From Streptomyces sp. TS71-3 (GTDB taxonomy: Bacteria; Actinomycetota; Actinomycetes; Streptomycetales; Streptomycetaceae), in the NCBI RefSeq assembly GCF_018327685.1, contig NZ_BNEL01000001.1, positions 2,666,001 through 2,730,000 of the forward strand: a DNA stretch of 64,000 nt, given 5' to 3'. Below, piece by piece: positions 7,729-36,796 of the stretch. Position 1 is the stretch's first letter. Each line of letters starts with the position of its first letter. Under the pieces are notes generated by a model. That model saw nothing but the letters and a program-made list of their open reading frames with translations, was not told the DNA's origin and searched no databases. A program made the translations under genes and the position numbers.

Positions 7729-9185
7729 GGCGCGTCCCCCGGCTCTCCGTCGCCCGTCCGCCCGCTGCCAGCGCCGCTGCCGGTCGCGCCGTCGGACGTC
7801 CGCCCGCTGCCGGTGGCGCCGTCGCCGGCCTCTCCGCCGCCCGCCCCTCCGCCGTCGATCGCGCCGTCGGACGTCCGCCCCTCGATGGCGGTCGCACCGG
7901 CGGTCCCGCGCGCCGTGTCCTTGGCCTGCGGGAGGGGCGGGAGGGGCAACCGGGCGGAGACGAGGAAGCCGCCCTCCGGGCCCCTGCCGGCCCAGAGGTG
8001 TCCCCCGACCGCGGTGGCACGTTCACGCATGCCGATCAGGCCGTAACCGGGCGCACGGTGCGCCACCGTGGACGCGGCCGGTCCGATGGACGCGGCCGGT
8101 CCGATGGACGCGGCCGGTCCGGTGGCCGCGGTCGGCGCCGTGCGGGCGCCCCCTCCGTCGTCGGCGACGGTGAGGGTCACGCGATCACCGTTCCACGTGA
8201 GGCCCACCCGGGCGCTGCCGGTACCGGCGTGCTTGGTCACGTTGGTCAGGGCCTCCTGGACGATCCGGTAGGCGGTGAGGTCCACGCCCGGCGGCAGCGG
8301 CCTGGCCGTGCCCTCCGTGTGCACCGACACCTCCAGACCCGCGCGGCGGAAGGTTTCAAGGAGCGTGGGAAGCCGGGACAGGCCGGGCGCCGGTTCGGCG
8401 GGGGCGGCCGTGTCCCCGGACTGGCGCAGCAGGCCGACCGTGGCCCGCAGTTCGTCGAGCGCGTGGCCGGTGGTCTCGACGAGCTCCCCCAGGCTCTTGC
8501 GGGTCTGCTCCGGGCGAGCGTCGAAGAGGTGGGCGGCGACCGTGGCCTGCGCGTTGGCCAGGGTGATCTGATGGGCCACGAGGTCGTGCAGCTCCCGGGC
8601 GATGCGCACCCGCTCCTCGGCCACCCTGCGGCGCGCCTCGCTGTCCCGGCTCTCCTCGGCCCGCAGGGCCCGCTCCTGAACGGCCGCCAGATAGGCACGC
8701 CGGTTCCGCACCGAGCGACCGAGTACGCCGGCCACCAGCGGGAACGCCGCCACCGCCGCCACCCTGCTCGCGTCCTGCCACGAGAGGCCCCCGAACAAGG
8801 GGGTGGAGGCGACCAGCAGTGCCGCGGAAGTGAGCGACACCGCGCTCGCCGCGCGCCGCTCGTCGGGCGCGGTGAGCGCGTAGGAATAGGCGGTGATCAC
8901 GGCGGGGGCCACGATGAGCGGGCTCAGCAGGAGGCCCAGGGGCGACACCACCACGCCGCAGGCGGTCGTGACCGCCATGGCGGCCAGGGGCGCCCGGTGC
9001 CGCACCGGCAGCGCGGCGCAGGACACGATGGCGATGGCGTAGGCGGCGGCGGGTGGTGCTGACAGCGTGTTGTCGACCTGCACGACCCCGCCGAGCAGGC
9101 AGAGCACGAACGCCGTCGCCGTGATCGCTCCCTGGCGCCGCCACGTGCCGCCCGGTCGCGGACCACTGCCTCCTGTGTCCGTCAT
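7725..9185 (-). CDS. NarL-family sensor histidine kinase (HisKA_3)
   Basis: A 486-aa kinase with four or five predicted membrane segments in residues 20-160 and almost no extracellular loop. The HisKA_3 dimerisation helix contains H200 in ARELHDLVAHQI. The HATPase has an N-box around NVTKHAG and a terminal GYGLIGMRERA. Between D-D-G-G-G and the GYGLIGM G-box lies an unusual insert of about 20 residues holding three tandem I-G-P-A-A-S repeats, encoded by an 18-bp DNA repeat near 8083-8120. The last 60 or so residues are Gly/Asp/Ser-rich repeats of no known function. The start is the ATG 7 nt downstream of the 9193 remnant. The gene is coupled to its regulator. Confidence 0.9.
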   Translation of the reverse strand: MTDTGGSGPRPGGTWRRQGAITATAFVLCLLGGVVQVDNTLSAPPAAAYAIAIVSCAALPVRHRAPLAAMAVTTACGVVVSPLGLLLSPLIVAPAVITAYSYALTAPDERRAASAVSLTSAALLVASTPLFGGLSWQDASRVAAVAAFPLVAGVLGRSVRNRRAYLAAVQERALRAEESRDSEARRRVAEERVRIARELHDLVAHQITLANAQATVAAHLFDARPEQTRKSLGELVETTGHALDELRATVGLLRQSGDTAAPAEPAPGLSRLPTLLETFRRAGLEVSVHTEGTARPLPPGVDLTAYRIVQEALTNVTKHAGTGSARVGLTWNGDRVTLTVADDGGGARTAPTAATGPAASIGPAASIGPAASTVAHRAPGYGLIGMRERATAVGGHLWAGRGPEGGFLVSARLPLPPLPQAKDTARGTAGATAIEGRTSDGAIDGGGAGGGEAGDGATGSGRTSDGATGSGAGSGRTGDGEPGDAP

Positions 9186-9192
9186 GGCCGGC

Positions 9193-9381
9193 TCAGTGCC
9201 GGCCGGAGGGGAGCCGACGCACCGCGGTGTCCGGCCCGGTCGTGGAGGCCGGGACCGGCCTGCTCAGTGCCTCACCCTCGATATCCGCATCAAGCAGCAC
9301 ATGCTTCAGGATAGGGGCCGGCCGCCAGGCCCGGCGGCCGAGCGGTGCCAGGACCACGGGTGCGATCTCCATCCGGACCAC
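9193..9381 (-). pseudogene. C-terminal remnant resembling an MMPL-family transporter
   Basis: A 62-codon open frame lies just upstream of the kinase on the same strand. Its product has the layout of MMPL protein C-termini: hydrophobic APVVLAPLGRRAW, a Trp/Pro segment RPAPILKHVLL, then DADIEGEAL. No upstream coding for the other 650 or more residues is present. I read it as the surviving 3' end of a deleted mycobacterial-membrane-protein-large-like gene, but the match is by eye over about 45 residues. A small independent ORF is possible. Confidence 0.35.
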
Positions 9382-9489
9382 TGCTGATCACTCCAACCAC
9401 CGCTGGGCAAGAGGAATTGCGCGCGATTCCCACGCCTCCCACCCTCGCCTCCGGCGCCCCGCCCGGCATCGTCCCCGAGTCCGCCTCCG

Positions 9490-9540
9490 CCTGGTGCGCC
9501 TGGACCAGCCACTCGCGTGTCCTGGTGCATACGCACTATG
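9490..9540. promoter_or_regulatory. Paired operator upstream of the LLM oxidoreductase
   Basis: CCTGGTGCATACGCACTATG at 9521-9540 matches the 4221-4240 core at 17 of 20 positions. A second site begins 31 bp before it (9490-9509) with an intact left arm CCTGGTGCG, mirroring the arrangement at 4217-4271. A further ACGCACCA half-site is at 9545-9552. The rest of 9382-9771 holds no gene I can support. Confidence 0.55.
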
Positions 9541-9771
9541 GGACACGCACCACAGGACACGCCACGGATCGCCCGCCGACCACACCGCCCCCCGCCCGTC
9601 CGGCACGCCGTCGGGGACCGAGGGGCGGCAGCCCGGCAGTCCACCCACGGACCTGATCTGGCCCGCCCGCGGCGATCCCTGATACACCGGATCAAGAAAC
9701 GGTGGCCTCGCACCCAACCCCAAGCGCGAGACACACCGACGTACTTGGCATGAACGCAGGGAGCACAGATC

Positions 9772-10626
9772 ATGAAAATCGGCATCGGGATCCCCAACCA
9801 GATACGCAACGTGCGAGCTGACGTCATCCCCGAGTGGGCGCGGCGTGCCGAAGCGGCGGGGTTCTCCTCCCTGGGCAGTGTGGGCCGGGTCGCCTACCCG
9901 GGGGTGATGGACACGGTCGCGCTGGCCGCCGCGGCGGGTGCCACGAGCAGGATCGGGCTCATCAGCAACGTCCTGCTCGGCCCGGTCTGGCCCGCCCTGA
10001 TGCTGGCCAAGGAGGCCCAGAGCATCGACGGTGTCTCGGGCGGCCGTCTCACCCTCGGCGTCGGCCTCGGTGGGCGTTCCGACGACTTCGTGGTGGAGGG
10101 TCTTGGCCCGCGCGGCACCGGCAAGCGGCTCGACCAGGACATCGAGACGTTCAAGAGCGTGTGGCGCGGTGAGACACCCGACGGCTGCGACAACCCGCTG
10201 GTCCCCGAGGGCAGCCGCGAGGTGCCCCTGCTCTTCGGCGGCATGGTCCAGGCGTCGTACGACCGCGTGGCGCGCTCCGGCCGCGGCTACATCGGCGCGT
10301 CACTGCCGGCCTCCATGGTCACCGGCGCCTTCGACGGCGTACGGGCGGCTTGGAAGGACGCCGGACGCGACGGCTCGCCGTACCTGGTCGCCATCGCGTA
10401 CTACGCCGTCGCGGACGTCGAGGGTGGCCGGGCGAACGTCTACGACTACTACTCCACCGCGGGAGCGGAGATCGCCGGGCTCATCTCGTCCGCGGCGAGC
10501 GGAGGAGCGGACGCGATCAGGAAGACGGTCGGTGAGTTCGAGGCACTCGGAGCCGACGAGCTGATCCTCAACCCGACCGGCGACGACCTCGACGAGATCG
10601 AGCGGGTCGCCGAGATCGTCCTCTGA
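9772..10626 (+). CDS. LLM-class flavin-dependent oxidoreductase
   Basis: A 284-aa bacterial-luciferase-like TIM-barrel enzyme. It opens with MKIGIGIPNQ (strand 1) and has the family segments EWARRAEAAGFSSL, ATSRIGLISNVLLGP and the substrate/flavin loop SGGRLTLGVGLGGR. It probably uses FMN or F420 to oxidise or reduce a small molecule. The length is slightly below the usual 300-350. The start has GGGAG about 8 nt upstream. A paired operator shared with the MFS/monooxygenase operon lies about 240 bp upstream, so the flavin enzymes are likely co-regulated. The stop codon sits inside the first unit of the 23-bp tandem repeat, so the last residues are encoded by repeat sequence. Confidence 0.87.
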   Translation: MKIGIGIPNQIRNVRADVIPEWARRAEAAGFSSLGSVGRVAYPGVMDTVALAAAAGATSRIGLISNVLLGPVWPALMLAKEAQSIDGVSGGRLTLGVGLGGRSDDFVVEGLGPRGTGKRLDQDIETFKSVWRGETPDGCDNPLVPEGSREVPLLFGGMVQASYDRVARSGRGYIGASLPASMVTGAFDGVRAAWKDAGRDGSPYLVAIAYYAVADVEGGRANVYDYYSTAGAEIAGLISSAASGGADAIRKTVGEFEALGADELILNPTGDDLDEIERVAEIVL

Positions 10627-17039: not shown

Positions 17040-17950
17040 GCGCCGTCCTCCAACCGGGCCAGGCCCCCGGCCTGAGGCCGCCCGGCGAGCCCGAGGCGGC
17101 GGCCGGCGCGTCGGGCGCCCGGATCGCCCTGCGCCGCTTCGCCCGCAACAAGCTCGCGGTCGTCGGGCTCGCGGTGGTCGTGTTCTTCGTGCTGTTCTGC
17201 TTCCTCGGCCCGGTCCTGTACCCGACCGACCAGACCCACACCACCCTGACGCAGGTGAACCTGGCGCCCAGCGGCGCCCACCTGCTCGGCACCGACGCGG
17301 TCGGCCACGACGAGCTCGGCCGGCTGATGTTCGGCGGCAAGGTGTCCCTCGTGGTGGGCCTCGCGGCCGGCATCCTCGCGACCGTCATCGGCACCCTCTG
17401 GGGCTCGGCGGCCGGCTACGCGGGCGGCTGGGTCGACGCGGTCATGATGCGCATCGTCGACGCCGGCATCGCGATCCCCGCGCTGTTCATCCTGCTCGTG
17501 GTCTCCGCGATCTCCACGCCCGGCATCCCGGGGCTGATCCTCATCCTCGGGTTCGTGTCCTGGCTGGTGCCGTCCCGGCTCATCCGGGCCGAGACGCTCA
17601 CGCTCAAGAACCGGGACTACATCCTGACCCTGCGCGCCATCGGCGGCACCCACAGCCGGGCCATCCTGCGGCACATCCTGCCCAACTCGATCTCCACCAT
17701 CGTCGTCGCCGCCACCTTCCAGGTCGCCGACGCGATCCTGCTCGTCGCCTACGTCTCCTACCTGGGACTCGGCGTCCAGCCGCCGTCCACCGACTGGGGC
17801 GGCATGCTCTCCTCCGGCCTCACGGCCGCCTACTCGGGCCGCTGGTGGCTGATCGTGCCGCCCGGCCTTGCCATCATCCTCGTGGTGTGCGCGTTCAACG
17901 CCATCGGCGACGGGCTGCGGGACGCCTTCGACGTGAGGGGGCGCGGATGA
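17036..17950 (+). CDS. ABC transporter permease (DppC type)
   Basis: A 304-aa second permease subunit. It has the DppC-specific N-terminal cytoplasmic extension with the segment RRFARNKLAVVGLAVV, the loop HLLGTDAVGHDELGRLMFGGKVSL typical of DppC, and the EAA-type loop around LTLRAIGGTHSRAILRHI. It is translationally coupled to both neighbours by 4-nt overlaps and forms the channel with the DppB-type subunit. Confidence 0.93.
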   Translation: MSAVLQPGQAPGLRPPGEPEAAAGASGARIALRRFARNKLAVVGLAVVVFFVLFCFLGPVLYPTDQTHTTLTQVNLAPSGAHLLGTDAVGHDELGRLMFGGKVSLVVGLAAGILATVIGTLWGSAAGYAGGWVDAVMMRIVDAGIAIPALFILLVVSAISTPGIPGLILILGFVSWLVPSRLIRAETLTLKNRDYILTLRAIGGTHSRAILRHILPNSISTIVVAATFQVADAILLVAYVSYLGLGVQPPSTDWGGMLSSGLTAAYSGRWWLIVPPGLAIILVVCAFNAIGDGLRDAFDVRGRG

Positions 17951-19929
17951 CCGCCGCCGAGAACGCCGGCGGGAGCGCCGGGATGCCCGCCGAGAAGACC
18001 GGCGGCGCGTCCGCCGGGTCTGCCGGGTCCGCCGGTTCCGCTGCCGGGTCTGCCGGGTCTGCCGGGTCCGCCGGGTCTGCCGGTTCCGCCGCCGGGTCAG
18101 CGGGTTCCGCCGCCGGTTCCGCAGGGCCGATCCTGGACGTCGCCGATCTGGGCGTCACGTTCGGCACCGAGACCGGTGACGTGCCCGCCGTCCGCGGCGT
18201 CGCGCTGGCCGTCGCGCCCGGCGAGACCCTCGCCCTGGTCGGCGAGTCCGGCTCCGGCAAGTCGACCGTGGCGCTCGCCGCGATGGGCCTGCTGCCGGCC
18301 AACGCCCGTGTCACCGGCTCGGTCTCCGTCGGCGGCCGGCAGGTGATCGGCACTTCCGAGGCCGAACTCGCCGGGCTGCGCGGCCGGTCCGCGGCCATGG
18401 TGTTCCAGGAGCCCGCGACCGCGCTCGACCCGCTGACGCGGATCGGCGCGCAGATCGCCGAGGTGATCCGCAACCACCGGGACGTGCACGCCCGCGAGGC
18501 CGCGCGGGAGGCCGTCGAGCTGCTGCGCCGCGTCGGCATACCCGACCCGGAGCAGCGCGCGTCCGCCTTCCCGTTCCAGCTCTCGGGCGGGCAGCGGCAG
18601 CGCGTCGTCATCGCCATGGCCATCGCCAACAGCCCCAGCCTGCTGATCGCCGACGAGCCGACCACCGCGCTCGACGTCACCGTGCAGGCCGAGGTCCTCG
18701 ACCTGCTGCGCGCGCTGGCCGCCGACTCCGGCACCGGCGTCCTGCTCGTCACGCACAACATGGGCGTGGTCGCGGACTTCGCCGACCGGGTCGCCGTGAT
18801 GCTCGACGGCGAGATCGTCGAGACCGGAACGGTGACGGACGTCCTGCTGCGGCCCCGGCACGACTACACCAAGCGGCTGCTGGGGGCCGTGCCGCGGCTT
18901 GCGGTGGCGGAGGCGGGCGCGGCCGGCGGTGCGCCGGGTGCCGGGTCCGCGGGTGCGGGTGGCGCCGGGACCGCGGACGCCGCGGGTGCCGCCGCCAAGA
19001 GCACGGACACGGATACGGGTGCCGCCAAGAACACGGACGCCGGTGGGCATGCGGACGCCACCGGGCATGCGGAAGCCGGTGGTGCCGGCGAGGCCGTGGT
19101 CGCCCTGGAAGGCGTGTCGGTGCGGTTCGGCCGCGGGCCTGGCGCCGTGCAGGCGCTCGACGAGGTGACGCTGTCCGTGCGGGCGGGGGAGACCGTCGGC
19201 CTGGTCGGCGAGTCGGGTTCGGGCAAGTCCACCGCGGCCAGGGTCGCGCTCGGTCTCGTCCAGCCGTCCGCCGGCTCGGTCCGGCTCTTCGGCTCCGACC
19301 TGCGCCGGTCGAGGGGGCGCGCACGCCGCGCCCTGCTCTCCGGCGTCGGCGTCGTCCTCCAGGACCCGGTGGCCTCGCTCGACGCCCGGATGAGCGTCGC
19401 CGAGTGCGTCGCGGAGCCGCTGTACGTGCACCGCGGCAAGATGACCGCGGTGCAGCGCCGGGCCAGGGTCGCCGACGTCCTCGACAGGGTCCGCCTGCCG
19501 CGGGCGCTGGCGAACCGCGCGCCGCGCGAGCTGTCCGGCGGGCAGCGCCAGCGGGTCAGCCTGGCCCGCGCCCTGGTCCTCGAACCCCGGCTGCTGGTCG
19601 CCGACGAGCCGACCAGCGCGCTCGACGTCAGCGTGCAGGCGGCGGTGCTGGAGGTGGTGAGGGAGCTCCAGGACGAGTTCGGCTTCGCCTGCCTCTTCGT
19701 CTCGCACGACCTCGCCGTCGTCCAGCAGTTCGCGCAGCGCGTCGTCGTGATGCGCGCGGGCCGGATCGAGGAGCAGGGCAGCACCGCGACCACGCTGCTG
19801 CACCCCGAGACGGACTACACCCGCCGGCTGATCGCGGCCGTGCCCGTGCCGGACCCGGAACTCCAGCGCCGCAGGCGCACGGCACGCCAGGCCGCGCTCG
19901 CCGCGGGCAGAACGGCGGCGGGTGCGTGA
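17947..19929 (+). CDS. Fused double ABC ATPase (DppD-DppF type)
   Basis: A 660-aa protein with two complete ABC ATPase domains. Walker A (GESGSGKST) occurs at residues 99-107 and again near 421-429. LSGGQRQRV signatures and Walker B LLIADEPTTALD and LLVADEPTSALD follow in each half. Usually these are two genes; here they are fused through a 60-residue Ala/Gly/Thr/Asp-rich linker. The first 60 residues are also odd: a Gly-Ser-Ala tract of AGS repeats encoded by degenerate 9- and 15-bp repeats at about 18000-18120. It energises the importer. It overlaps the permease stop by 4 nt and the ROK kinase start by 4 nt. Confidence 0.93.
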   Translation: MTAAENAGGSAGMPAEKTGGASAGSAGSAGSAAGSAGSAGSAGSAGSAAGSAGSAAGSAGPILDVADLGVTFGTETGDVPAVRGVALAVAPGETLALVGESGSGKSTVALAAMGLLPANARVTGSVSVGGRQVIGTSEAELAGLRGRSAAMVFQEPATALDPLTRIGAQIAEVIRNHRDVHAREAAREAVELLRRVGIPDPEQRASAFPFQLSGGQRQRVVIAMAIANSPSLLIADEPTTALDVTVQAEVLDLLRALAADSGTGVLLVTHNMGVVADFADRVAVMLDGEIVETGTVTDVLLRPRHDYTKRLLGAVPRLAVAEAGAAGGAPGAGSAGAGGAGTADAAGAAAKSTDTDTGAAKNTDAGGHADATGHAEAGGAGEAVVALEGVSVRFGRGPGAVQALDEVTLSVRAGETVGLVGESGSGKSTAARVALGLVQPSAGSVRLFGSDLRRSRGRARRALLSGVGVVLQDPVASLDARMSVAECVAEPLYVHRGKMTAVQRRARVADVLDRVRLPRALANRAPRELSGGQRQRVSLARALVLEPRLLVADEPTSALDVSVQAAVLEVVRELQDEFGFACLFVSHDLAVVQQFAQRVVVMRAGRIEEQGSTATTLLHPETDYTRRLIAAVPVPDPELQRRRRTARQAALAAGRTAAGA

Positions 19930-26354: not shown

Positions 26355-27203
26355 GTGCCCTCATCGTCGTCCAGCGTTCAGCAGGCTCGGCAAGCCTTCG
26401 GCCTGCGCCTGCGGGAGATCCGCAAGGACGCTGGACTGACGGCGAGGGAGCTGGCCCGGCGGGCCGGTTGGCATGAATCGAAGTGCTCGCGCCTGGAGCA
26501 CGCGAGAACGCCGCCGTCCGACAACGACATCCGGTCTTGGGCGCTGCACTGCGACGCTCAGGATCAGATCGAGGACCTGATCGCCACGGCGCGCGGCATC
26601 GAGGGCATGTACATCGAGTGGCGGCGCGTGGAGCGCGCCGGGCTCAAGCAGGTCCAGGAGTCCGTGGCGCCCCTCGTCGAACGAACGCGCCGTTTTCGCT
26701 CCTACCAGTCCTGGGTCGTCCCGGGGCTACTTCAGACCGCCGCGTACACCAAGGCTGTGCTGGAGACCATCACCGCGCTTCGCGACGTGCCGGACGACGT
26801 CGACGACGCGGTGCAGGTGCGCATCGAGCGTCAGCAGGCGCTGCACTCCGGTCGCCAGCGCTTCGCCATGCTCCTGGAGGAGTGGGTACTGCGCACGATC
26901 ATCGGCAACGCGGAGGTCATGGCTGGTCAGCTCGGACATCTGATCTCCGTGGCAACCCTGCCGTCGGTGAGCCTGGGCGTGATCCCGCTGGGCACCCCTC
27001 GGGGCAAGGGCTGGCCCGTCGAGTCCTTCACGATCTACGACGAGGAACAGGTCAACGTGGAGCTGGTGTCCGCACACCTGACGGTCACCTCTCCGAGCGA
27101 GGTGGCCGAGTACAGCAAGGCATTCGCCGCGCTGGCCGATATCGCCGTCTATGGTGCGCAGGCGCGAGGACTCATCACGGCCGCCATCGACGCACTCAGG
27201 TGA
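26355..27203 (+). CDS. XRE-family regulator with DUF5753 domain
   Basis: A 282-aa regulator. The N-terminal HTH (about residues 10-65) reads FGLRLREIRKDAGLTARELARRAGWHESKCSRLEH. The remainder is a DUF5753 domain with the marker IPGLLQT-like segment WVVPGLLQTAAYTKAVL and the strand-rich C-terminus VSLGVIPLGTPRGKGWPVESFTIYDE. Such proteins are WhiJ-like DNA-binding regulators. It is the last gene of its operon. A dyad element found before that operon is repeated 4 bp after this stop codon, ahead of the lanthipeptide genes, so it probably regulates both. Confidence 0.9.
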   Translation: MPSSSSSVQQARQAFGLRLREIRKDAGLTARELARRAGWHESKCSRLEHARTPPSDNDIRSWALHCDAQDQIEDLIATARGIEGMYIEWRRVERAGLKQVQESVAPLVERTRRFRSYQSWVVPGLLQTAAYTKAVLETITALRDVPDDVDDAVQVRIERQQALHSGRQRFAMLLEEWVLRTIIGNAEVMAGQLGHLISVATLPSVSLGVIPLGTPRGKGWPVESFTIYDEEQVNVELVSAHLTVTSPSEVAEYSKAFAALADIAVYGAQARGLITAAIDALR

Positions 27204-27831: not shown

Positions 27832-28011
27832 ATGACCGTGCAAATCGACAGTTCGGCTACTCCCGAGCAGCCGGCCGCCGACACCGACGACGACCCGTTC
27901 CAGCTCGACATCACCTTCATCGAGAACACGCCGGCAACCGAGACCGTGCTGATGTGCAGCACCGGTGACAACTGCGGAAGCTCCTGCCCGAGCGCCTGCA
28001 CCACGTCGTAA
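27832..28011 (+). CDS. lanA: FxLD-family class I lanthipeptide precursor
   Basis: A 59-aa precursor with AAGGAG 6 nt upstream. The leader (about residues 1-41) is acidic and contains PFQLDI at 22-27, the F-x-L-D motif that defines the family. The C-terminal core is rich in modifiable residues: Cys at 42, 48, 52 and 56; Ser/Thr at 43, 44, 50, 51, 54, 57, 58 and 59; and a single Asp, D46, in TGDNC. Up to four lanthionine or methyllanthionine rings are possible. D46 is the only core carboxylate available to the locus methyltransferase. The leader cleavage site is not obvious, and no dedicated protease gene is nearby. The lanB gene follows after 79 nt. Confidence 0.87.
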   Translation: MTVQIDSSATPEQPAADTDDDPFQLDITFIENTPATETVLMCSTGDNCGSSCPSACTTS

Positions 28012-28090
28012 CACGCCGTCCGCCGGTGTGGGTCGGACGGATCGCCTCCGCCCGACCCACACCCTTCCAGCCAAGAACGGAGTCCGGATT

Positions 28091-30127
28091 ATGACGCGCT
28101 TACGACAGAACCTGTACAGGGGGACGGGCCAAGGGATGCTGCGCGCTGCGGCGCACCTCTCCGAGCCGGTCATGCCGCCCTGGCCGGGGCCTGCGGCTTC
28201 GCTCGTGCACTGGCGTTCGTGGCTGGCCGCGGTGTGGGCCGATGACACATTCCGGCGGGCTGTGTCGAGCGCGAGCCCGGACCTGGAACGCCAGGTCCAG
28301 TCGATCATCGATGGCCGCTCACCGAAGGTGCGCCGGGTGCGACGTGCGGCGCTGGCCATCGCCCGGTATGCGATCAGGTACGCGCGGCGCTCTACCCCGT
28401 TCGGCCTGTTCGCGGGCGTTGCGCTGGTCGAGTTCGGCGACATGGCCGAGGTACGAGTCGGGGACCGGCACCAGGCGGTCAGCAGGCCGGATCCGGTGGC
28501 CCTGGATGCCGCGGTCACCGGCTGGGAGGGCGACGGCGCGCGGATGGCCGACGTTGACGTATGCGTGAACAATCTTGTTCAGCAGCGAGACGGGCGGGTT
28601 CACGTTCCGTCCCAGGGGGCCTCGGAGTTCTCGTTGGCGCTGACGCCCGCGGTCGCGCTCGTCCTCGACGTGGCCCGATCACCGATCCGGTACTCGGACC
28701 TGGCGGAGAAGCTCGCCGCAGAGCTTCCGGGGACGGCTGACCATCACAGGGCCGGTCTGCTTGCGCAACTTCTACGGGTGCGCTTGCTGCGGTCCGCACT
28801 GCGCGCTCCCGCGACCGTCGTCCACCCCACGGACGTCCTTCCCTCCACCTTGCGAGAGGAGATTCGGAACACCTCGTCGGCGACGGATCTGAGGCTGGAC
28901 GCCACGGTCCGGCTCCCGAGCGCGGTCCTGACGGAGGCGGAGACCGCTGCGACCGTCCTGGCCCGGATCGCTACGCATCTGAGCGGCACCCCGGCATGGC
29001 GTCGCTGGATCGCGCAGTTCGCCGAGCGCTACGGCGAAAGCACCGAGGTGCCCCTGAACCTGGTGCTGGACCCCGAGAAGGGCTTGGGCTTTCCCGACGG
29101 GTTCGGCCACGTGTCCGAGCCGCCACGCCCCATGACGCGGCGGGACCGACTGCTGCTGGGGTTCGCGGGTGCTGCCGTGGCCGAAGGCGCTCGCTCGGTG
29201 CCACTGCCCCCTGCGCTGATCGAAGAGTTGGAGGCCGCCGCAGGCAAGCCCGCCGGCACCGCGCCGCATCTCGAACTGGCGGTGTCCGTCAACGCCCGCT
29301 CGACGCAGGCTCTGGAACGTGGGAACTTCCGACTCCAGGTGTCCACCGTCTCTCGCTCGGCCGGCTCGATGACGGGCCGGTTCTGGCACCTGTTCCCGAA
29401 TGCAGGCATGGTGTGCGCCGACCTGCCCACAGTCGAAGCCGGCGCGGAGCTGGCCCAGCTCTCCTTCCACCCCGGTCGCGTCCCGGCCGACCTGCTCACC
29501 CGCGTCCCGCGCGTGCTGCCCCGACTGGTCAGCGTCGGCGAGTTCCGTCAGCCGGAGGAAGGCGTGCTGTTCCCCTCCGACCTGGCCATCGGCATCCGTG
29601 ACAGCCGCCCCTACCTTGCCGACGCCGTCACCGGCACGCACCTCGAACTGCTCGCGCCGACTGCCCTGAACTTCCTATGGAACAACTACACGCCTCCGCT
29701 GGCGCGCTTCCTCGTCGAGATCAGCCGGGCCACGACCCCGCAGGTGACCTCGTTCGACTGGGGTGCGGCGTGGACGCTGCCCTTCACTCCGGCCGTGCGC
29801 TACCGCCGCTCGACCTTGGTGGCCGCACGATGGAAGGTACGGGCCAGGGACTTGCCCAGCCGGACGGTGAGGCTGGATGAGTGGGCCGGGCAGTTACACG
29901 GCTGGATGGCCCGCTTCCGCGTACCGGACCGCGTGCTGCTGACCGAGGACGATCAACAGCTTCCACTCGACCTGCACCAGAACATGCACCTGGACCTGCT
30001 GCGTGCTCACCTCGATGCCAGCCCGACCGGCATCGCGACCCTCCATGATGCGCCTGGTCCAGAGGCTGACGGATGGATCGGCGGTAGGGCCCACACCCTC
30101 GTCCTTCCCATGGAGGCGCGCTCATGA
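28091..30127 (+). CDS. lanB: Lantibiotic dehydratase, LanB N-terminal (glutamylation) part
   Basis: A 678-aa protein matching the N-terminal domain of class I LanB dehydratases, recognised by RRAALAIARYAIRYARRSTPFGLFAGVALVEFG and the later SLVSVGEFRQPEEG-like region. This part transfers glutamate from glutamyl-tRNA to core Ser/Thr. The elimination (SpaB_C-like) domain is absent and is instead fused to the methyltransferase encoded two genes downstream, so the dehydratase is split. Codon 4 (28100-28102) is TTA and codon 602 (29894-29896) is TTA, the rare leucine codon read by the bldA tRNA. The ATG at 28091 has GGAG about 9 nt upstream. The stop overlaps lanC (ATGA). Confidence 0.88.
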   Translation: MTRLRQNLYRGTGQGMLRAAAHLSEPVMPPWPGPAASLVHWRSWLAAVWADDTFRRAVSSASPDLERQVQSIIDGRSPKVRRVRRAALAIARYAIRYARRSTPFGLFAGVALVEFGDMAEVRVGDRHQAVSRPDPVALDAAVTGWEGDGARMADVDVCVNNLVQQRDGRVHVPSQGASEFSLALTPAVALVLDVARSPIRYSDLAEKLAAELPGTADHHRAGLLAQLLRVRLLRSALRAPATVVHPTDVLPSTLREEIRNTSSATDLRLDATVRLPSAVLTEAETAATVLARIATHLSGTPAWRRWIAQFAERYGESTEVPLNLVLDPEKGLGFPDGFGHVSEPPRPMTRRDRLLLGFAGAAVAEGARSVPLPPALIEELEAAAGKPAGTAPHLELAVSVNARSTQALERGNFRLQVSTVSRSAGSMTGRFWHLFPNAGMVCADLPTVEAGAELAQLSFHPGRVPADLLTRVPRVLPRLVSVGEFRQPEEGVLFPSDLAIGIRDSRPYLADAVTGTHLELLAPTALNFLWNNYTPPLARFLVEISRATTPQVTSFDWGAAWTLPFTPAVRYRRSTLVAARWKVRARDLPSRTVRLDEWAGQLHGWMARFRVPDRVLLTEDDQQLPLDLHQNMHLDLLRAHLDASPTGIATLHDAPGPEADGWIGGRAHTLVLPMEARS

Positions 30128-31194
30128 CAGCGGCGACCCCGCCTGGGACTCAGGATCTGTCCGAGGGTGTCCTCGGAGTAGCGCTGCTGCACATCGAACG
30201 CGGTGATCTTCCCTCCGCCCACAACAGCCTGGAGCACGCGGTTGCCGAGGGCGTGAGCGCAGGAGCCAACGCCTCGCTCTTCCACGGCGCCCCGGCACTG
30301 GAGTTCGTGCTCAGCTGCGCCGGACGCGCTGACCGGGACGTCCGCAACGTCGTCGATCGCATGGTGACTGTCCGACTGGCCGCGGCACACTGGCGGCGGG
30401 CTTCTGGCGCCCTGCCGTATCTCGGAGAGTTCGACCTCATCCGCGGTCTGACGGGGCTGGCCGCCCTGCTGCTGACCCGCGGCGGGGTTCCGGCGTTGCT
30501 GAAAGAGATCTTGTCCTACCTCGTCTCGCTGTCACGGCCGGTCTACATCGAAGGCCGTGACCTGCCGGGGTGGTGGTCGCAGTCCGGGCCCGCTGACGAG
30601 GAGATGGACGGGGGACACGGCAACAACGGCGTCGCTCACGGTATCGCCGGGCCCTTGGCCGTGCTGTCCCTCGCCACGCGGCACGGCATCCGGGTGCCGG
30701 GGCAGCACGACGCCATCGAGGTCTTCGCGCACTGGCTGGACACGTACGGCTGCTGCTACTGGACCACCCAGGACGAGCTGACAGATCCCGAGCCACCCAA
30801 GCCAGCGCCGACGCGTCCGTCCTGGTGCTACGGCCCGCCCGGCATCGCCCGGGTGCAGCAGCTCGCCGCGCTCGCGCTGGGCGACCCGGCCCGACGGCTC
30901 GCGGCAGAGGACACCATCGCGAGCGCACTCTCCGACGCAGCGCACCTCGACCGGATCAGGGACGCCTCGCTGTGCCACGGATGGGCCGGCCTGGTGACCC
31001 TCGTCCGTGCCGTTGCCGACGACAGCACTGCTCCCAGCCGGTTCACACCGCTGATCGACGACCTGACCACCCGCCTCGCCGCTGACCTGGCGCATCTGCC
31101 CAAGCCCGGATTCATGGAGGGCCGTGCCGGCGCGCAACTGGCTCTGGACGGCACGAACAGCACCGGCTGGACCAGAGCCCTGCTGATCACTTGA
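30124..31194 (+). CDS. lanC: LanC-like lanthionine cyclase
   Basis: A 356-aa LanC-family protein. Zinc ligands are readable: Cys in SWCYGPPG and Cys-His in LCHGWAG. The family helical-toroid motifs GGHGNNGVAHGIAGPLAVLSLA and the C-terminal PGFMEGRAGAQLAL are also present. It would catalyse Michael-type addition of core cysteines to dehydroalanine or dehydrobutyrine. Translation is coupled to lanB by a 4-nt overlap. The methyltransferase gene begins about 50 nt downstream. Confidence 0.9.
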   Translation: MTAATPPGTQDLSEGVLGVALLHIERGDLPSAHNSLEHAVAEGVSAGANASLFHGAPALEFVLSCAGRADRDVRNVVDRMVTVRLAAAHWRRASGALPYLGEFDLIRGLTGLAALLLTRGGVPALLKEILSYLVSLSRPVYIEGRDLPGWWSQSGPADEEMDGGHGNNGVAHGIAGPLAVLSLATRHGIRVPGQHDAIEVFAHWLDTYGCCYWTTQDELTDPEPPKPAPTRPSWCYGPPGIARVQQLAALALGDPARRLAAEDTIASALSDAAHLDRIRDASLCHGWAGLVTLVRAVADDSTAPSRFTPLIDDLTTRLAADLAHLPKPGFMEGRAGAQLALDGTNSTGWTRALLIT

Positions 31195-31244
31195 CGTCGG
31201 TCGGCGTACGGACCGAGCCCACTCATGAGGAACGCCCACGAACC

Positions 31245-33299
31245 ATGGACATCGACGACGAGAACCTTCCGATCACCGCCGAGAACGACTGGTGGCACGC
31301 CATCGTGTCGTTTCCGGACGGCACCGGAGTGAGCCCGCAGGCCGCCCACGCGCTCTCGACCGCCCTGCACGACCAGCGATTTCACTTCCTGCGCAAAGAC
31401 GGCGGGCTGAGGCTACGCACCGAGCACTCCGCGGCAGAGCTGCTGAACGGTCTCGTAGCCTCCCAGCACGTCAGCGGCTGGGTCAGCGGCGTCTACGAGC
31501 CGGAGACCGAAGCCTTCGGCGGCCCCGAGGGCATGGACGTCGCACATGACGTGTTCTGCGCCGACAGCCGTGCCGCCCTGGCCGAGGTCGGCAGTACGGG
31601 AGCCAGAGAACGTTGTGTTCTGCTGCTCTCCGCCATGATCCGGTCAACTGGTCTCGACCCGTTCGAAGCAGGCGATGTCTGGGCGAGACTCAGCACCCTG
31701 CGGCCCCCCGTCACCCCGCCCACCGGTCTGGCTCGCGATCGGGCCATCACCGCCATGCGACGCCTGATGAACGCCGACGCGGCCCGGCGGCCGGACGCGG
31801 AACCCGGATGGGCCGAACGGGTCGCCGCCTTCGAAGAGACCGGCCGTCAGCTCCGCCGACTCGCCGCCCAAGGGTGGTTGATACGGGGCTTGCGCGCCGT
31901 CCTCGCCCATCATGCGATCTTCGCCTTCAACCGCGCAGGAGTACCTGCCGACGAGCAGGCCGCCACCGCGTGGCTCGCTCGTCAGGTCGCCTTCAGCGCA
32001 GGCGAAGCCGCCGACGTGTCCATCCACCGGTCCGCCTCGCCGGACCCTGACCTCGCTCGAATGGAGATCACCGTGCCACCCGCCACCGACCCCGCCGAAC
32101 TGCGTGAAGCCCTCGTCACCCGCCTCGTCGACAGCGGCCATCTGCGCACCCCCGCCGTCGTCGACGCCTTCCGCACCACCGAACGCCACCGGTTCCTCCC
32201 TGGCGTTGATCTCCACAAGGCATACATCGAGGACGCTGTGCCCACCAAGCACGACGAGAACGGCGAGATGATCTCCTGCATCTCCGCACCATCGATCGTC
32301 GCCACCCAGTTGGAGCAGATGGGCGTCCAGCCCGGCCACAAGGTCCTGGAAGTCGGAGCGGCCACGGCCTACAACGCCTGCCTCCTGAGTGAACTCGTCG
32401 CCCCCAGCGGCCATGTGTGGACCGTGGACGTCGACCAGGACCTCGTCACCGGCGCCCAGAAGAACCTCGCCGAGGCCGGCGCCTCGAACGTGACCGCGCT
32501 CCTGGGCGACGGCGCCGCCGGCCTTCCCGTGTACGCGCCCTTCGACCGCATCCAGTTCACGGTCGGCGCCGGCGACGTACCCGTGAAGATCCTGGATCAG
32601 CTCACCCCCGGCGGACGCCTGATCATTCCGATGCGCATCCGCGGCAGCATCTCCCGCAGCTTCGCCTTCGAACGGGACGGCAGCACCTGGAAGACCGTCT
32701 CCTGCGAGATGGCCACCTTCGTGCCCCTGCGCAAGGGCGTCTGCAACGACCTCTACACCCTGGTTCCCATGGACGGCGAGGGCAACGTCCGCCTGGAGAC
32801 CTTCAGCGAGCAGGAGGTCGACCGCGACGCGATCCGCACCGTCCTCGACCAGGAGCAGGCCAAGGTCCACACAGGCGTGAAGTTCCGCCAAGGCGACCCG
32901 TGGGAGTGGCTGTACCTCTACCTTGCCTCCGTGCTCCCCAACGGTCTGTCCCGCATGCCCGGCCAGCGCCCCGGCTTCACCCCGCACTTCGGCTGGGGGT
33001 CCATGGCCGCACTCGACGGCGAAAGCCTGGCCTACTTGACCATCCGCCAGGGCGAGGACGGAGGCGGCCGGTACTGGGAGATCGGCGTCATCGGCCACGG
33101 CCCACACGCCGCCGAGCTTGCCGACCGCGTCGCGGGCGAGATCCGCGACTGGAACGAGGGCTGGGGCAACACCGCGCCGGAGCCCAGCTTCCGAATGGCC
33201 GTCGGCGACACCCGCGACCAGCTCACGCCCTCCGACCCGCGCTTCGTCATCGACAAGACCTACAGCCGTCTTGTCGTCGACTGGCCGCGCGAGGCATGA
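31245..33299 (+). CDS. FxLD-system methyltransferase fused to a LanB elimination domain (LanSA-like)
   Basis: A 684-aa two-part protein. Residues about 1-260 resemble the thiopeptide-type/SpaB_C elimination domain (NDWWHAIVSF near the start, RSTGLDPFEAGDVW in the middle), which removes glutamate to form dehydroamino acids. Residues about 270-480 form a protein-L-isoaspartate O-methyltransferase domain with the AdoMet motif VLEVGAATAYNACLLSELV and DRIQFTVGAGDVP. The last 200 residues are family-specific. Related OlvSA-type enzymes methylate a core Asp, producing an aspartimide and then isoaspartate. ATG 31245 is preferred; a TTG at 31191 is also open. The next gene begins 4 nt after the stop. 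Confidence 0.87.
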   Translation: MDIDDENLPITAENDWWHAIVSFPDGTGVSPQAAHALSTALHDQRFHFLRKDGGLRLRTEHSAAELLNGLVASQHVSGWVSGVYEPETEAFGGPEGMDVAHDVFCADSRAALAEVGSTGARERCVLLLSAMIRSTGLDPFEAGDVWARLSTLRPPVTPPTGLARDRAITAMRRLMNADAARRPDAEPGWAERVAAFEETGRQLRRLAAQGWLIRGLRAVLAHHAIFAFNRAGVPADEQAATAWLARQVAFSAGEAADVSIHRSASPDPDLARMEITVPPATDPAELREALVTRLVDSGHLRTPAVVDAFRTTERHRFLPGVDLHKAYIEDAVPTKHDENGEMISCISAPSIVATQLEQMGVQPGHKVLEVGAATAYNACLLSELVAPSGHVWTVDVDQDLVTGAQKNLAEAGASNVTALLGDGAAGLPVYAPFDRIQFTVGAGDVPVKILDQLTPGGRLIIPMRIRGSISRSFAFERDGSTWKTVSCEMATFVPLRKGVCNDLYTLVPMDGEGNVRLETFSEQEVDRDAIRTVLDQEQAKVHTGVKFRQGDPWEWLYLYLASVLPNGLSRMPGQRPGFTPHFGWGSMAALDGESLAYLTIRQGEDGGGRYWEIGVIGHGPHAAELADRVAGEIRDWNEGWGNTAPEPSFRMAVGDTRDQLTPSDPRFVIDKTYSRLVVDWPREA

Positions 33300-33303
33300 C
33301 CCG

Positions 33304-34413
33304 ATGGTCCCCGCGCCCGTGATAGCCAGCCGCATCCCGCTGGTCCGCCGCCCCAAGGCGCCGGCTCTCCCGCTGGACGAGCGCATCATCCACCTCACCG
33401 GGCTGACGGTCGCACCCGCCGGTGCGAGCCACCACGATCTGGTGGCCCGCGCCAGCGGGGTCCTCAACTACGCCGCGCTGATCGCCTCCGACGTCGGGCT
33501 GCCCGACCTGGCCGGCGACCTGTGCTGGAGACAGCACCAGGTATTCGCCGATGCCGGAAACCTCACGGGAGACATCGCTGTGATGTCGCTCATGCCCCTC
33601 ATCAACATCTCCCGGCTCCTGACTCGCGAGGGCAACGGCGAAGCCGCCTACACCGTGCTCCAACGCCTCTACCGGGCGGCACAGAAGCGCGGCACAGCCG
33701 AGATCTACGGCAGGATCGTCGACCTCTCGGCACTGATCCGCACGGAAGCGGACCACCGGAAGGTCTGCGAGGAACTGTGGACCACCGTCCTCGTCGACGG
33801 CGCCGGGGCCCTGGCACGGATCGGCCGCTGGACCGAGGCAGCCCAAGCCATGACCGCCCACCGCGGCGTCGGCAACCGCCTTCTCGACGGCCGCCAAATC
33901 CTGATCATGTCCCTGATGGAACGCAGCCTCGATCAAGAGGCCCGCGACACGATCGACTCCACCACCCCCGCAGAGCAGTGGGAGGACACCGTCGCCGCCC
34001 TTCTGCGCCTCCACTGCCGCCCACCGGGGGAGCCCGTGCCGCGACAGGAGTTGGACGCCGTCCTGCGAGAGGCATCGGCCTTGATCGCCACGCCCGACGC
34101 TTCGATCGCAGCGTTCCAGACCCGAGTCGGACTTGCCGCGCTCGACCTGGCCCGCGAGCGCACCAGCCCCTTCGTGGCTCCCTTGCGAGAGGCCATGGCA
34201 GACGTTGCCGTCCTGGACGCTTATGCCGCTCGCGACGTCCTGAACCACGCTGTGGCACGTCCCCACCTCGCCAGTGGGCAGCAACAGAAACTCGATGCTG
34301 TGCTCGCCACATCAGGGATCGGAACAGGGCACCTCTCAACAACCCGCATGCGTGCCCTCACCGACGCCGTGGACACGGCGGAAGCTGGGCTCCGCGGTCT
34401 TCTCTCACCCTGA
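33304..34413 (+). CDS. Helical-repeat protein of unknown function in the lanthipeptide operon
   Basis: A 369-aa cytoplasmic protein with no TM segment or signal peptide. Repeated Ala/Leu-rich helix pairs (for example ALIASDVGLPDLAGDLCWRQH and LQRLYRAAQKRGTAEIYGRI) suggest a TPR-like superhelix. No DNA-binding or catalytic motif is seen. It starts 4 nt after the methyltransferase stop and is surely co-transcribed. Roles could be scaffold, immunity or regulatory protein for the FxLD pathway; none can be chosen from sequence. Confidence 0.75.
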   Translation: MVPAPVIASRIPLVRRPKAPALPLDERIIHLTGLTVAPAGASHHDLVARASGVLNYAALIASDVGLPDLAGDLCWRQHQVFADAGNLTGDIAVMSLMPLINISRLLTREGNGEAAYTVLQRLYRAAQKRGTAEIYGRIVDLSALIRTEADHRKVCEELWTTVLVDGAGALARIGRWTEAAQAMTAHRGVGNRLLDGRQILIMSLMERSLDQEARDTIDSTTPAEQWEDTVAALLRLHCRPPGEPVPRQELDAVLREASALIATPDASIAAFQTRVGLAALDLARERTSPFVAPLREAMADVAVLDAYAARDVLNHAVARPHLASGQQQKLDAVLATSGIGTGHLSTTRMRALTDAVDTAEAGLRGLLSP

Positions 34414-35348: not shown

Positions 35349-35851
35349 GACAGTCCCTCCTTCATCAGAACCAGGAGGGCCCACACGACTTTTCCGGCCG
35401 CGCCGCGCGGTTCGACGCCCCAGCCGTCGGCCAGGGCGTCCACCAGGGCCAAGCCCCGGCCGGAAACGTCCTCGTCCGTCGCGTCCTTCAGTGCCGGCCG
35501 TTCGTCGCTCGTGTCGGAGACCTCAAGCCGCAACCGGCGCCCGTTCAGCTCGAACCTGACCTTGAATTCCCGGATATCCCGGCTATCTCGGCTGTTCGTG
35601 GTCTGAGCGTTGACGGCATTGACGGCGTTGGCGGCCAGCTCGGAGAGGAGCAAGGTTGCCGAGTCGGCGGCGTCACCCTCGACATGCCACAAGGCGAGTT
35701 GGTCCCGGAGGGCCGCGCGGGCACGGCTGACGCTGCGGGCGTGGCCAGGGAACCGGTACGCCACCGCTTGCGCGGCGGGCGGTGCGGGATGGGCCGCGGG
35801 TCCAAGCTCTGGCATGCGGACTAGCTGCGTTTTCGTGATCTCATGGGTCAC
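35345..35851 (-). CDS. RsbW-like ATP-binding regulatory protein
   Basis: A 168-aa GHKL-fold protein (HATPase_c_2). It has N-box LLLSELAANAVNAV, G1-like DTSDERP and G2 GRGLALVDALADGWG. It resembles anti-sigma factor kinases such as RsbW but is of the small stand-alone type found with XRE/DUF397 modules in Streptomyces, as in the abaA and whiJ loci. It may bind and phosphorylate a partner protein. GTG 35851 has GGAGAGGAG upstream. It is the first of three overlapping genes, divergent from the XRE gene across about 105 bp with an inverted repeat. Confidence 0.85.
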   Translation of the reverse strand: MTHEITKTQLVRMPELGPAAHPAPPAAQAVAYRFPGHARSVSRARAALRDQLALWHVEGDAADSATLLLSELAANAVNAVNAQTTNSRDSRDIREFKVRFELNGRRLRLEVSDTSDERPALKDATDEDVSGRGLALVDALADGWGVEPRGAAGKVVWALLVLMKEGLS

Positions 35852-35867
35852 CGACCGCTCCTCTCCG

Positions 35868-35883
35868 TAGTGTTTCCACTACC
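35868..35883. promoter_or_regulatory. Inverted repeat between divergent WhiJ-like module genes
   Basis: GTAGTG-TTTC-CACTAC is a perfect 6-bp inverted repeat in the short region between the RsbW-like and XRE genes. It is the best candidate operator for the XRE protein. Confidence 0.5.
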
Positions 35884-35956
35884 AAGGGCGTTCAGCGTGG
35901 CGTACAGTTGGGCGTCCTTCAACGTGGCAGTTCGGAAGGATGGGGTGGGGCAACCC

Positions 35957-36796
35957 ATGGTGAACCGCATGGAGTTGAATCCCGAGAAGTCGCCCGAGGC
36001 GGCGTTCGGCGCGCGTCTGCGCAGCGCACGTGAGGTGCGTGGCTGGACGCAGGAAGAACTTGGTGAGCGAACGGGCTACACCGGCCAGCACATCTCGGCG
36101 GTGGAAACTGGCCGCAAACCGCCAACGCTGCGTTTCTCGCGTAGTACGGACGTGGTGTTCGGGGTCGTGGGAACGGCCGAGTCGTTCGAACGCGCGTGGC
36201 GCGAGATCAAGCACAACAGCCTGCTGGAGGGGTTCCCGGAATACGTCAAATACGAGGGGCGGGCGGCCGAGATCCGGCTGTTCGACATCGGGATCATCCC
36301 TGGTCTGTTACAGACACCGGAGTACGCCCGGGTGCTGGCGGACAGCGCTGTGCGGCGGGGTGTCATCACGGACGAACAAGCCGCTGCACGTGTCTCGTTC
36401 CTGGCTGAGCGACAGGCGGCGCTGACGCGGCCCCGCCCTCCCATGGTGCTGGTGGTCATGGATGAGAGCTGCATCCGCAGGCGGGTCGGTGGAGACGAAG
36501 TCATGGGCGCCCAGCTCGACCGGCTGCTGGAGTTCGCCGAGTTGCCGAACACCGTGCTCCAGATCGCTCCGTTCGACATCGGGGAGCGTCGTCCGTTCAA
36601 CTACCTGACGTACTTTCTGACGCTGCCGGACCTGTCCGTGATCGCGTACGCGGAATCTCAGATCCGAGGGCACCTGGAGCGTGAAGCGCCGGCGGTCCTT
36701 CCGCTACTGACGGCCTACCATCAGTTGCAGGCCGAAGCGCTGTCCCAGGCAGCATCCGTGACCCTGATCAACGAGGCACGAAAGGGCACCCCGTGA
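35957..36796 (+). CDS. XRE-family regulator with DUF5753 domain (WhiJ-like)
   Basis: A 279-aa DNA-binding protein. The HTH lies at about residues 15-70: FGARLRSAREVRGWTQEELGERTGYTGQHISAVETG. The DUF5753 domain follows, with the marker IGIIPGLLQTPEYARVLADSA and IAPFDIGERRPFNYLTYF. Codon 118 (36308-36310) is TTA, suggesting bldA dependence. ATG 35957 is selected after a G-rich stretch; GTG 35960 is possible. The stop overlaps the DUF397 start (GTGA). This pairing regulates development and secondary metabolism in Streptomyces. Confidence 0.9.
   Translation: MVNRMELNPEKSPEAAFGARLRSAREVRGWTQEELGERTGYTGQHISAVETGRKPPTLRFSRSTDVVFGVVGTAESFERAWREIKHNSLLEGFPEYVKYEGRAAEIRLFDIGIIPGLLQTPEYARVLADSAVRRGVITDEQAAARVSFLAERQAALTRPRPPMVLVVMDESCIRRRVGGDEVMGAQLDRLLEFAELPNTVLQIAPFDIGERRPFNYLTYFLTLPDLSVIAYAESQIRGHLEREAPAVLPLLTAYHQLQAEALSQAASVTLINEARKGTP

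What the first reader, a model, noticed from the sequence alone, without database searches (positions are those of the whole stretch)
27832..34413. FxLD-type class I lanthipeptide locus with a split LanB and an Asp-modifying methyltransferase
A 59-aa precursor with F-x-L-D leader and a Cys/Ser/Thr-rich core precedes LanB (glutamylation domain only), LanC and a fusion of the LanB elimination domain to a PIMT-like methyltransferase. Related OlvSA-type enzymes act on a core Asp. The core has a single Asp (D46) between T-G and N-C, so a prediction can be made: a lanthionine-bridged product with aspartimide or isoaspartate at D46. The exact core and ring layout look distinctive, and no export or protease gene is adjacent.
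Basis: partly seen in the sequence, partly recalled or inferred. Interest (0 to 1): 0.9.

Follow-up and report, generated by a model that had tools for sequence, protein, structure and literature searches.

The report
Lanthipeptide cluster with one fused lyase
A Streptomyces gene cluster probably makes a sulfur-bridged peptide with one chemically altered aspartate; its kind is known, but here the usual ring-forming lyase is missing and a lyase joined to a methyltransferase seems to do the job alone, which should give unusual ring stereochemistry.

Summary
Precursors with a core Asp and a PIMT-like methyltransferase are a known, abundant actinobacterial kind (olv, coi), so Asp46 modification is the expected reading. 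Less expected is the lyase. In the characterised coi cluster the fused lyase is a syn-lyase working beside a full-length LanB with an anti-lyase. Here LanB stops at the domain junction and the fused lyase has the syn signature (Lys in place of Tyr, no NisB-Arg826 equivalent). Of 107 FxLD loci classified, 15 (the window included) have this architecture; 41 loci from named genomes, at least seven of them the same contigs, also lack an anti-lyase. It is one lineage with a nearly invariant core. In five of the 15 genomes the fused lyase is the only such domain found; the window's own genome has three others. Predicted product: four thioether rings, Thr-derived ones through (E)-Dhb, with isoaspartate or aspartimide at Asp46. 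None of the chemistry is shown here. A new variant of a known kind.

The parts
27832..28011 (+). FxLD lanthipeptide precursor, 59 aa; leader motif F23-x-L25-D26; core about T38-S59 (TVLMCSTGDNCGSSCPSACTTS; the cleavage site is not known)
   Evidence: TIGR04363 59.2 bits; translation; core nearly invariant in 55 precursors
27967..27969 (+). codon of Asp46, predicted methylation / aspartimide / isoAsp site inside predicted ring T44-C48
   Evidence: sequence; T-x-D-[GNT]-C in all classified precursors of the survey except 6 of 43 in coi-type loci
28091..30127 (+). LanB, glutamylation domain only (678 aa), ends at the inter-domain junction
   Evidence: Pfam Lant_dehydr_N only; alignment with five full-length LanBs
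30124..31194 (+). LanC cyclase (356 aa), with SWCYG, LCHGWAG and AHG motifs kept
   Evidence: LANC_like; motif table
31245..32060 (+). glutamyl lyase domain of the fusion, syn-type; Lys codon 31395-31397, Arg pair 31410-31412 and 31416-31418
   Evidence: PF14028 60.6 bits; residue table; Lys and both Arg invariant in 41 aligned sequences, the window's among them
32094..33284 (+). PIMT-like O-methyltransferase domain with C-terminal extension (LanSA type)
   Evidence: TIGR04364 417.8 bits over residues 302-698; matches PIMT structures 2yxe, 1dl5
33304..34413 (+). gene H, 369 aa, predicted all-helical solenoid, probably the counterpart of CoiH
   Evidence: present in 15 of 15 loci of this type (window counted), 30 of 33 coi-type, 15 of 44 unfused-type, 0 of 11 olv-type; model pLDDT 88.5

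Best explanation
A class I FxLD lanthipeptide cluster of the lanthimiditide kind in which the canonical anti-glutamyl-lyase domain of LanB has been lost and a single bifunctional enzyme does both the elimination and the Asp methylation. Proposed order: LanB-N glutamylates core Ser/Thr from Glu-tRNA; the lyase domain of the fusion removes glutamate, by syn-elimination at Thr, giving (E)-Dhb, and Dha at Ser; LanC closes rings T38-C42, T44-C48, S51-C56 and C52-T58; the methyltransferase domain then esterifies D46 inside ring T44-C48, which closes to the aspartimide and opens mainly to isoaspartate. Shown here: gene content, active-site residues, no other lyase domain found in five related genomes, one-lineage grouping. 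Inferred: every chemical step, the ring pattern (by homology to CoiA1/OlvA), the loss of the LanB lyase as the direction of change, and allo-type stereochemistry at the Thr-derived rings.
For: Families and motifs. Fused lyase of this type: Lys 15/15, Arg pair 15/15, NisB-Arg826 position Ala 14/15 or Thr 1/15, against Arg at that position in 87 of 89 anti-lyase domains of LanB proteins in the survey. Published signature of syn-lyases: Lys for Tyr, hydrophobic for Arg826 (PMC9486935, PMC9011353; parts and passages read). 15 of 107 loci lack the anti-lyase while holding the fusion, and 0 of 41 named-genome loci have one. In 5 of 15 genomes with this type the fused domain is the only PF14028 hit (one of the five is 85% complete). 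Methyltransferase and lyase trees put fused coi-type and this type on one side of a branch (SH-aLRT 100 and 99). Core: Ser at the ring-B position in 55/55, Thr at ring A and at T38 in 55/55, Thr at ring C in 54/55 (not independent cases).
Against: No product has been seen. When CoiSA(ED) was the only active lyase in the coi system, three dehydrations occurred but CoiC did not close all rings (PMC9486935), so a syn-only route needs a LanC with changed tolerance, which I did not show. The window's own genome holds three other lyase domains, so help in trans is not excluded there. In the unfused type, 24 of 44 anti-lyases lack the Arg pair and yet 22 of these 24 loci keep Thr at ring B, so Ser at ring B is not a general answer to a weak or missing anti-lyase; and the 15/15 Ser is one lineage, so one event. 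The window's methyltransferase has one odd letter in the SAM motif (AATAY, 14 of 15 loci of the type AATGY). FastTree support for this type as one group in the methyltransferase tree was only 0.76 with all 15 rows.
Confidence: 0.62

Rival explanations
1. The missing anti-lyase is supplied in trans by another LanB of the genome, so the product has coi-like mixed stereochemistry.
For: The window's genome has three other PF14028 domains: one in a 1116-aa frame at C1:2002174, and an anti- and a syn-lyase in a second FxLD locus at C1:3062249-3065201. Ten of 15 genomes of this type hold one to four further PF14028 domains.
Against: Five of 15 genomes of this type hold no other PF14028 domain at E<=0.001. 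The anti-lyase of the second own locus lacks the Arg pair (DT instead of RR).
Confidence: 0.12
2. The fused lyase of this lineage carries out anti-elimination, or both, despite the syn-like residues; the rings are ordinary dl/ll-MeLan.
For: It is the sole lyase of the cluster and ring A keeps Thr in 55/55, for which CoiC needs (Z)-Dhb (PMC9486935). The lineage sits on a long branch and has a shortened N-terminal stretch.
Against: Lys 15/15 and no Arg826 equivalent; SptBb, a published syn-lyase with this residue set, gives (E)-Dhb by NMR (PMC9890492, read).
Confidence: 0.2
3. The locus is decaying and makes no modified peptide.
For: One relative locus (L185) has a cut-short LanC and no fusion found in 20 kb; the SAM motif of the window's methyltransferase has one odd residue.
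Against: All window genes of the cassette are open; the lyase residues are invariant in 41 aligned sequences; the core is almost invariant while the leader varies.
Confidence: 0.06

Closest known systems
coi cluster, Streptomyces coelicolor A3(2) (CoiA1, CoiB, CoiC, CoiSA, CoiH)
   Same: precursor with T-x-D-x-C core, LanC, syn-type lyase fused to PIMT-like methyltransferase; gene H next to the fusion in 30 of 33 coi-type loci
   Different: CoiB is full length with an anti-lyase domain; here LanB has none. Core ring-B residue is Ser not Thr, there is an extra Cys42, and D+1 is Asn (subgroup: Thr or Asn), where the 37 scored coi-type precursors have Gly (22) or Asn (15). That the window's H is CoiH was not tested by accession.
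olv cluster (OlvA, OlvB, OlvC, OlvSA)
   Same: precursor of the same family, LanC, methyltransferase acting on a core Asp; olv-type cores have a Cys at the place of Cys42
   Different: full-length LanB, stand-alone methyltransferase, no syn-lyase; Ser at the ring-C position in 10 of 11 olv-type loci
SapT cluster (SptA, SptBa, SptBb, SptC)
   Same: split LanB whose only lyase is a syn-lyase
   Different: lyase stand-alone; no methyltransferase named in the passages read; the cores were not compared here

Membership tests
FxLD lanthipeptide (TIGR04363 / TIGR04364) | precursor over the curated cut-off | tested here: met
   59.2 vs 30 bits
FxLD lanthipeptide (TIGR04363 / TIGR04364) | FxLD-system methyltransferase over the curated cut-off | tested here: met
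   417.8 vs 320 bits
class I lanthipeptide | LanB glutamylation domain, lyase domain and LanC present | tested here: met
   PF04738, PF14028, PF05147
class I lanthipeptide | (methyl)lanthionine rings in the product | not testable with these tools
   no chemistry available
coi subtype | syn-type lyase fused to PIMT-like methyltransferase | tested here: met
coi subtype | full-length LanB with its own anti-lyase | tested here: not met
   678-aa LanB ends at the domain junction; no other PF14028 found in the window
split-LanB syn-lyase systems (SapT type) | glutamylation and syn-type elimination on separate polypeptides, no anti-lyase in the cluster | tested here: met
   by sequence only
lanthimiditide (Asp-modified lanthipeptide) | PIMT homologue plus conserved core Asp, typically TXDGC | tested here: met
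   T-G-D-N-C, not the typical G after D; D+1 is N or T in 55 of 55 of this subgroup; N and T after D are noted as known variants in PMC13001092
lanthimiditide (Asp-modified lanthipeptide) | aspartimide or isoAsp formed at that Asp | not testable with these tools
   needs MS/NMR

The most novel reading that the evidence does not exclude
A lineage spread over several actinobacterial genera makes an almost invariant lanthipeptide in which every Thr-derived ring arises through (E)-Dhb, i.e. allo-MeLan rings throughout, including around the modified Asp, by a single enzyme that couples syn-elimination to Asp methylation. Because the residue after the Asp is Thr or Asn and never Gly, the aspartimide may last longer or reopen differently than in the TxDGC relatives. 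The near-invariant core suggests a fixed target rather than a diversifying antibiotic.
Probability: 0.35. Interest if true: 0.65.

Novelty: new variant of a known kind. Interest (0 to 1): 0.5.

Why it matters
Published work ties the lyase type to MeLan stereochemistry, and states that methyltransferase-fused syn-lyases sit in clusters that also have a full-length dehydratase (PMC9486935; an earlier paper says 'in almost all cases' two elimination domains, PMC9011353). This lineage is a natural loss-of-anti-lyase experiment: it makes a sharp stereochemical prediction that can be tested with a handful of genes, and it asks how LanC co-evolved. It also offers a nearly invariant core as a starting point for finding what this kind of peptide does; PMC9486935 notes that the coi and olv products had not been reported from their native producers.

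Tried and rejected
Rejected: that the fused lyase is an ordinary anti-lyase split off from LanB (its residues are syn-type). Rejected: that the locus is unique or a chance arrangement (15 loci of 107, and 41 overlapping ones). First AU tests rejected a common branch of coi-type and this type in the LanB and LanC trees (p 1.6e-53 and 6.8e-44); I put this down to loci holding two clusters, dropped L071, L102, L103, L061, L116, L098, L077 and L089 before sampling again, and the repeat does not reject it (p 0.49 and 0.24); it does not show it either. The methyltransferase and lyase trees were not repeated without those loci, and the methyltransferase subsample leaves out the window's own row (14 of 15 drawn). 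I first hoped that Ser at ring B would mark every cluster without a working anti-lyase; 22 of 24 unfused-type loci with a degenerate anti-lyase keep Thr there, so I dropped that rule. The structure model of the fusion is poor (mean pLDDT 59.5, lyase part mostly under 50) and was not used. The fold search with gene H gave no match at E<=0.001, only weak hits, many of them helical-repeat proteins. Papers not held: PMC6812601 and PMC4475899, so Acedo 2019 and Zhang 2015 are known to me only through other papers.
Full report
What is there. The window (G000, C1:2666001-2730000, 9.79 Mb genome) carries on the + strand a 59-aa precursor (27832-28011), LanB (28091-30127), LanC (30124-31194), a fusion protein (most likely ATG 31245 to 33299, 684 aa like its database relatives) and gene H (33304-34413, 369 aa). 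LanB and LanC overlap by four bases. Family matches are strong: TIGR04363 59.2 bits, TIGR04364 417.8 bits, TIGR03891 118.3 bits, PF04738, PF05147, PF14028 and PF01135. The LanB stop falls at the junction where five full-length LanBs run on into the lyase domain. The genus is Streptomyces by inference: several same-genus contigs have the length of named Streptomyces contigs.

What is already known. Class I precursors with a PIMT-like methyltransferase and a conserved core Asp are the most abundant class I families in Actinobacteria (PMC7268733, passages and one section; PMC13001092, outline, passages and two sections; PMC10787088, passages). OlvSA methylates the Asp of the cyclised peptide, giving aspartimide and then mostly isoAsp (PMC13001092). 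Fusion of the lyase domain to the methyltransferase is also known, and in coi the fused domain CoiSA(ED) is a syn-lyase beside a full-length CoiB (PMC9486935, parts 1-3 of 5 read; PMC9011353, passages; PMC9890492, both parts).

What differs. I searched 295 genomes drawn from the same genus with TIGR04363; 89 had a match. From these I fetched 105 stretches and classified them together with the window and the second own locus, 107 in all: 44 with full LanB, stand-alone syn-lyase and separate methyltransferase (unfused type); 33 with full LanB and a fused lyase-methyltransferase (coi type); 15 with LanB lacking the lyase and a fused lyase-methyltransferase (window type, the window among them); 11 with full LanB and methyltransferase only (olv type; one of them, L098, lies among the unfused type in the methyltransferase tree, and its contig may simply be cut); 3 partial; 1 other. 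Several loci hold two clusters, so the labels are approximate. The window's own genome has, besides this locus, an unfused-type locus at C1:3057000-3072000 (L007).

A pattern-based protein search in named genomes found 41 loci with relatives of the window's LanB; none shows an anti-lyase, and 34 of 41 show the fusion in one frame. The other seven: L175, L179 and L184 end at contig ends, L204 and L208 look frame-shifted, L209 contains runs of N, and L185 has a cut-short LanC and no fusion. The genomes include Streptomyces, Nonomuraea, Rhizohabitans, Streptoalloteichus, Microbispora and Streptacidiphilus. At least seven of the 41 are the same contigs as loci of the first set, judged by equal contig lengths, so the 55 pooled precursors are not 55 independent cases.

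The lyase. In an alignment of 179 lyase domains the window type has Lys at the CoiSA-K46 position in 15 of 15, the Arg pair in 15 of 15, and Ala (14) or Thr (1) at the NisB-Arg826 position; LanB-borne anti-lyases have Arg there in 42/44 (unfused), 33/33 (coi), 11/11 (olv) and 1/1 (other). Of the 33 syn-type domains in coi-type loci the first Arg is Pro in 18, Arg in 14 and Lys in 1, while the window type keeps it in all 15, as expected if its lyase bears the whole load. The Lys, both Args and the Glu are invariant in 41 aligned sequences (the window's own and 40 relatives chosen from the 120 listed of 478 hits).

Help in trans. Across the 15 genomes with the window type, five (G116, G216, G197, G099, G262) have no other PF14028 domain at E<=0.001. 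G216 is 85% complete, G099 is in about 1020 and G116 in about 540 contigs; G197 is a single contig and G262 is in nine. The other ten, the window's genome included, have one to four more.

Origin. Methyltransferase and lyase trees put coi type and window type together on one side of a branch (SH-aLRT 100 and 99), and the window type is one group in the methyltransferase, lyase, LanB and LanC trees (100; subsamples of at most 14 per type). With all rows FastTree gave the window type 1.0 in the lyase, LanB and LanC trees but 0.76 in the methyltransferase tree. The LanB and LanC trees rejected the joint branch at first and neither support nor reject it after eight loci, most of them composite or cut, were dropped. 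The simplest reading is one fusion followed by one loss of the LanB lyase domain; the root is not fixed.

The core. The last 22 residues take 11 forms among 55 precursors, 26 copies of one and 12 of the window's own form (the window counted), while the leader's N-terminal half varies. By homology with CoiA1 (T43-C47, T50-C55, C51-T57; PMC9486935) the rings are T44-C48, S51-C56 and C52-T58, with D46 inside the first; Cys42 lies where olv-type cores have a Cys and would pair with Thr38, Thr in 55 of 55. Ser stands at ring B in 55 of 55; in the other types it does in 2/44 (unfused), 8/37 (coi) and 6/11 (olv) of scored precursors. Since the subgroup is one lineage this is one event. D+1 is Thr (36) or Asn (19), never Gly; Asn after D also occurs in the coi type (15 of 37) and unfused type (8 of 44). 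In lasso peptides an Asp-Thr aspartimide is fairly stable and reopens to Asp (PMC13001092); whether that carries over is open.

Surroundings. Gene H is adjacent to the fusion in all 15 window-type loci and in 30 of 33 coi-type loci; it is in 15 of 44 unfused-type and 0 of 11 olv-type loci, so in this survey it occurs only where a syn-lyase does. Among the 41 named-genome loci 37 have it; the four without are L175, L179, L184 and L185. Its model is a helical solenoid of good confidence (mean pLDDT 88.5) with no clear structural match. In the stretch 24-40 kb of the window no other gene was found beside all window-type loci apart from the cassette and frames overlapping it. An oligopeptide-type ABC transporter ATPase lies at 17845-19929; whether it goes with the cassette elsewhere was not tested.

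Verdict. Real, correctly placed in a known family, and a new variant in that the only lyase of the cluster is a syn-type lyase fused to the Asp methyltransferase. Whether this exact subgroup has been described in print I cannot say: the searches and the texts seen do not bring it up, but supplements and several papers were out of reach.

Noticed in passing
L007 (G000:C1:3057000-3072000), 7414-10488 on the - strand, and 23 further unfused-type loci: In 24 of 44 unfused-type loci the anti-lyase domain of LanB lacks the Arg pair that in NisB binds the glutamyl carboxylate, while the aligned His is kept; in these the stand-alone syn-lyase may carry most of the work.
   Followed up: partly
P0102: A 544-aa protein joins part of the PIMT-like domain directly to gene H, with the methyltransferase C-terminal part missing; either a natural fusion or an assembly/deletion artefact.
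   Followed up: no
window 26355-27203 and 35843-36796: Two HTH_31 + DUF5753 regulator genes flank the cassette; they match a Sco1979-type regulator model below its cut-off, and no relative was found in the 14 other window-type stretches.
   Followed up: partly
window 17845-19929: ABC transporter ATPase with oligopeptide/dipeptide-type C-terminal region about 8 kb upstream of the precursor.
   Followed up: no
window 31191-33299 (methyltransferase motif I): SAM-binding motif reads GAATAY in the window where the 14 other loci of the type read GAATGY.
   Followed up: no
coi-type loci L082, L083, L084, L090, L103, L130: These hold two or three precursors; one form has SDGGC (SDGGS in L084) instead of TxDGC, 6 of 43 coi-type precursors being outside the motif.
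   Followed up: no
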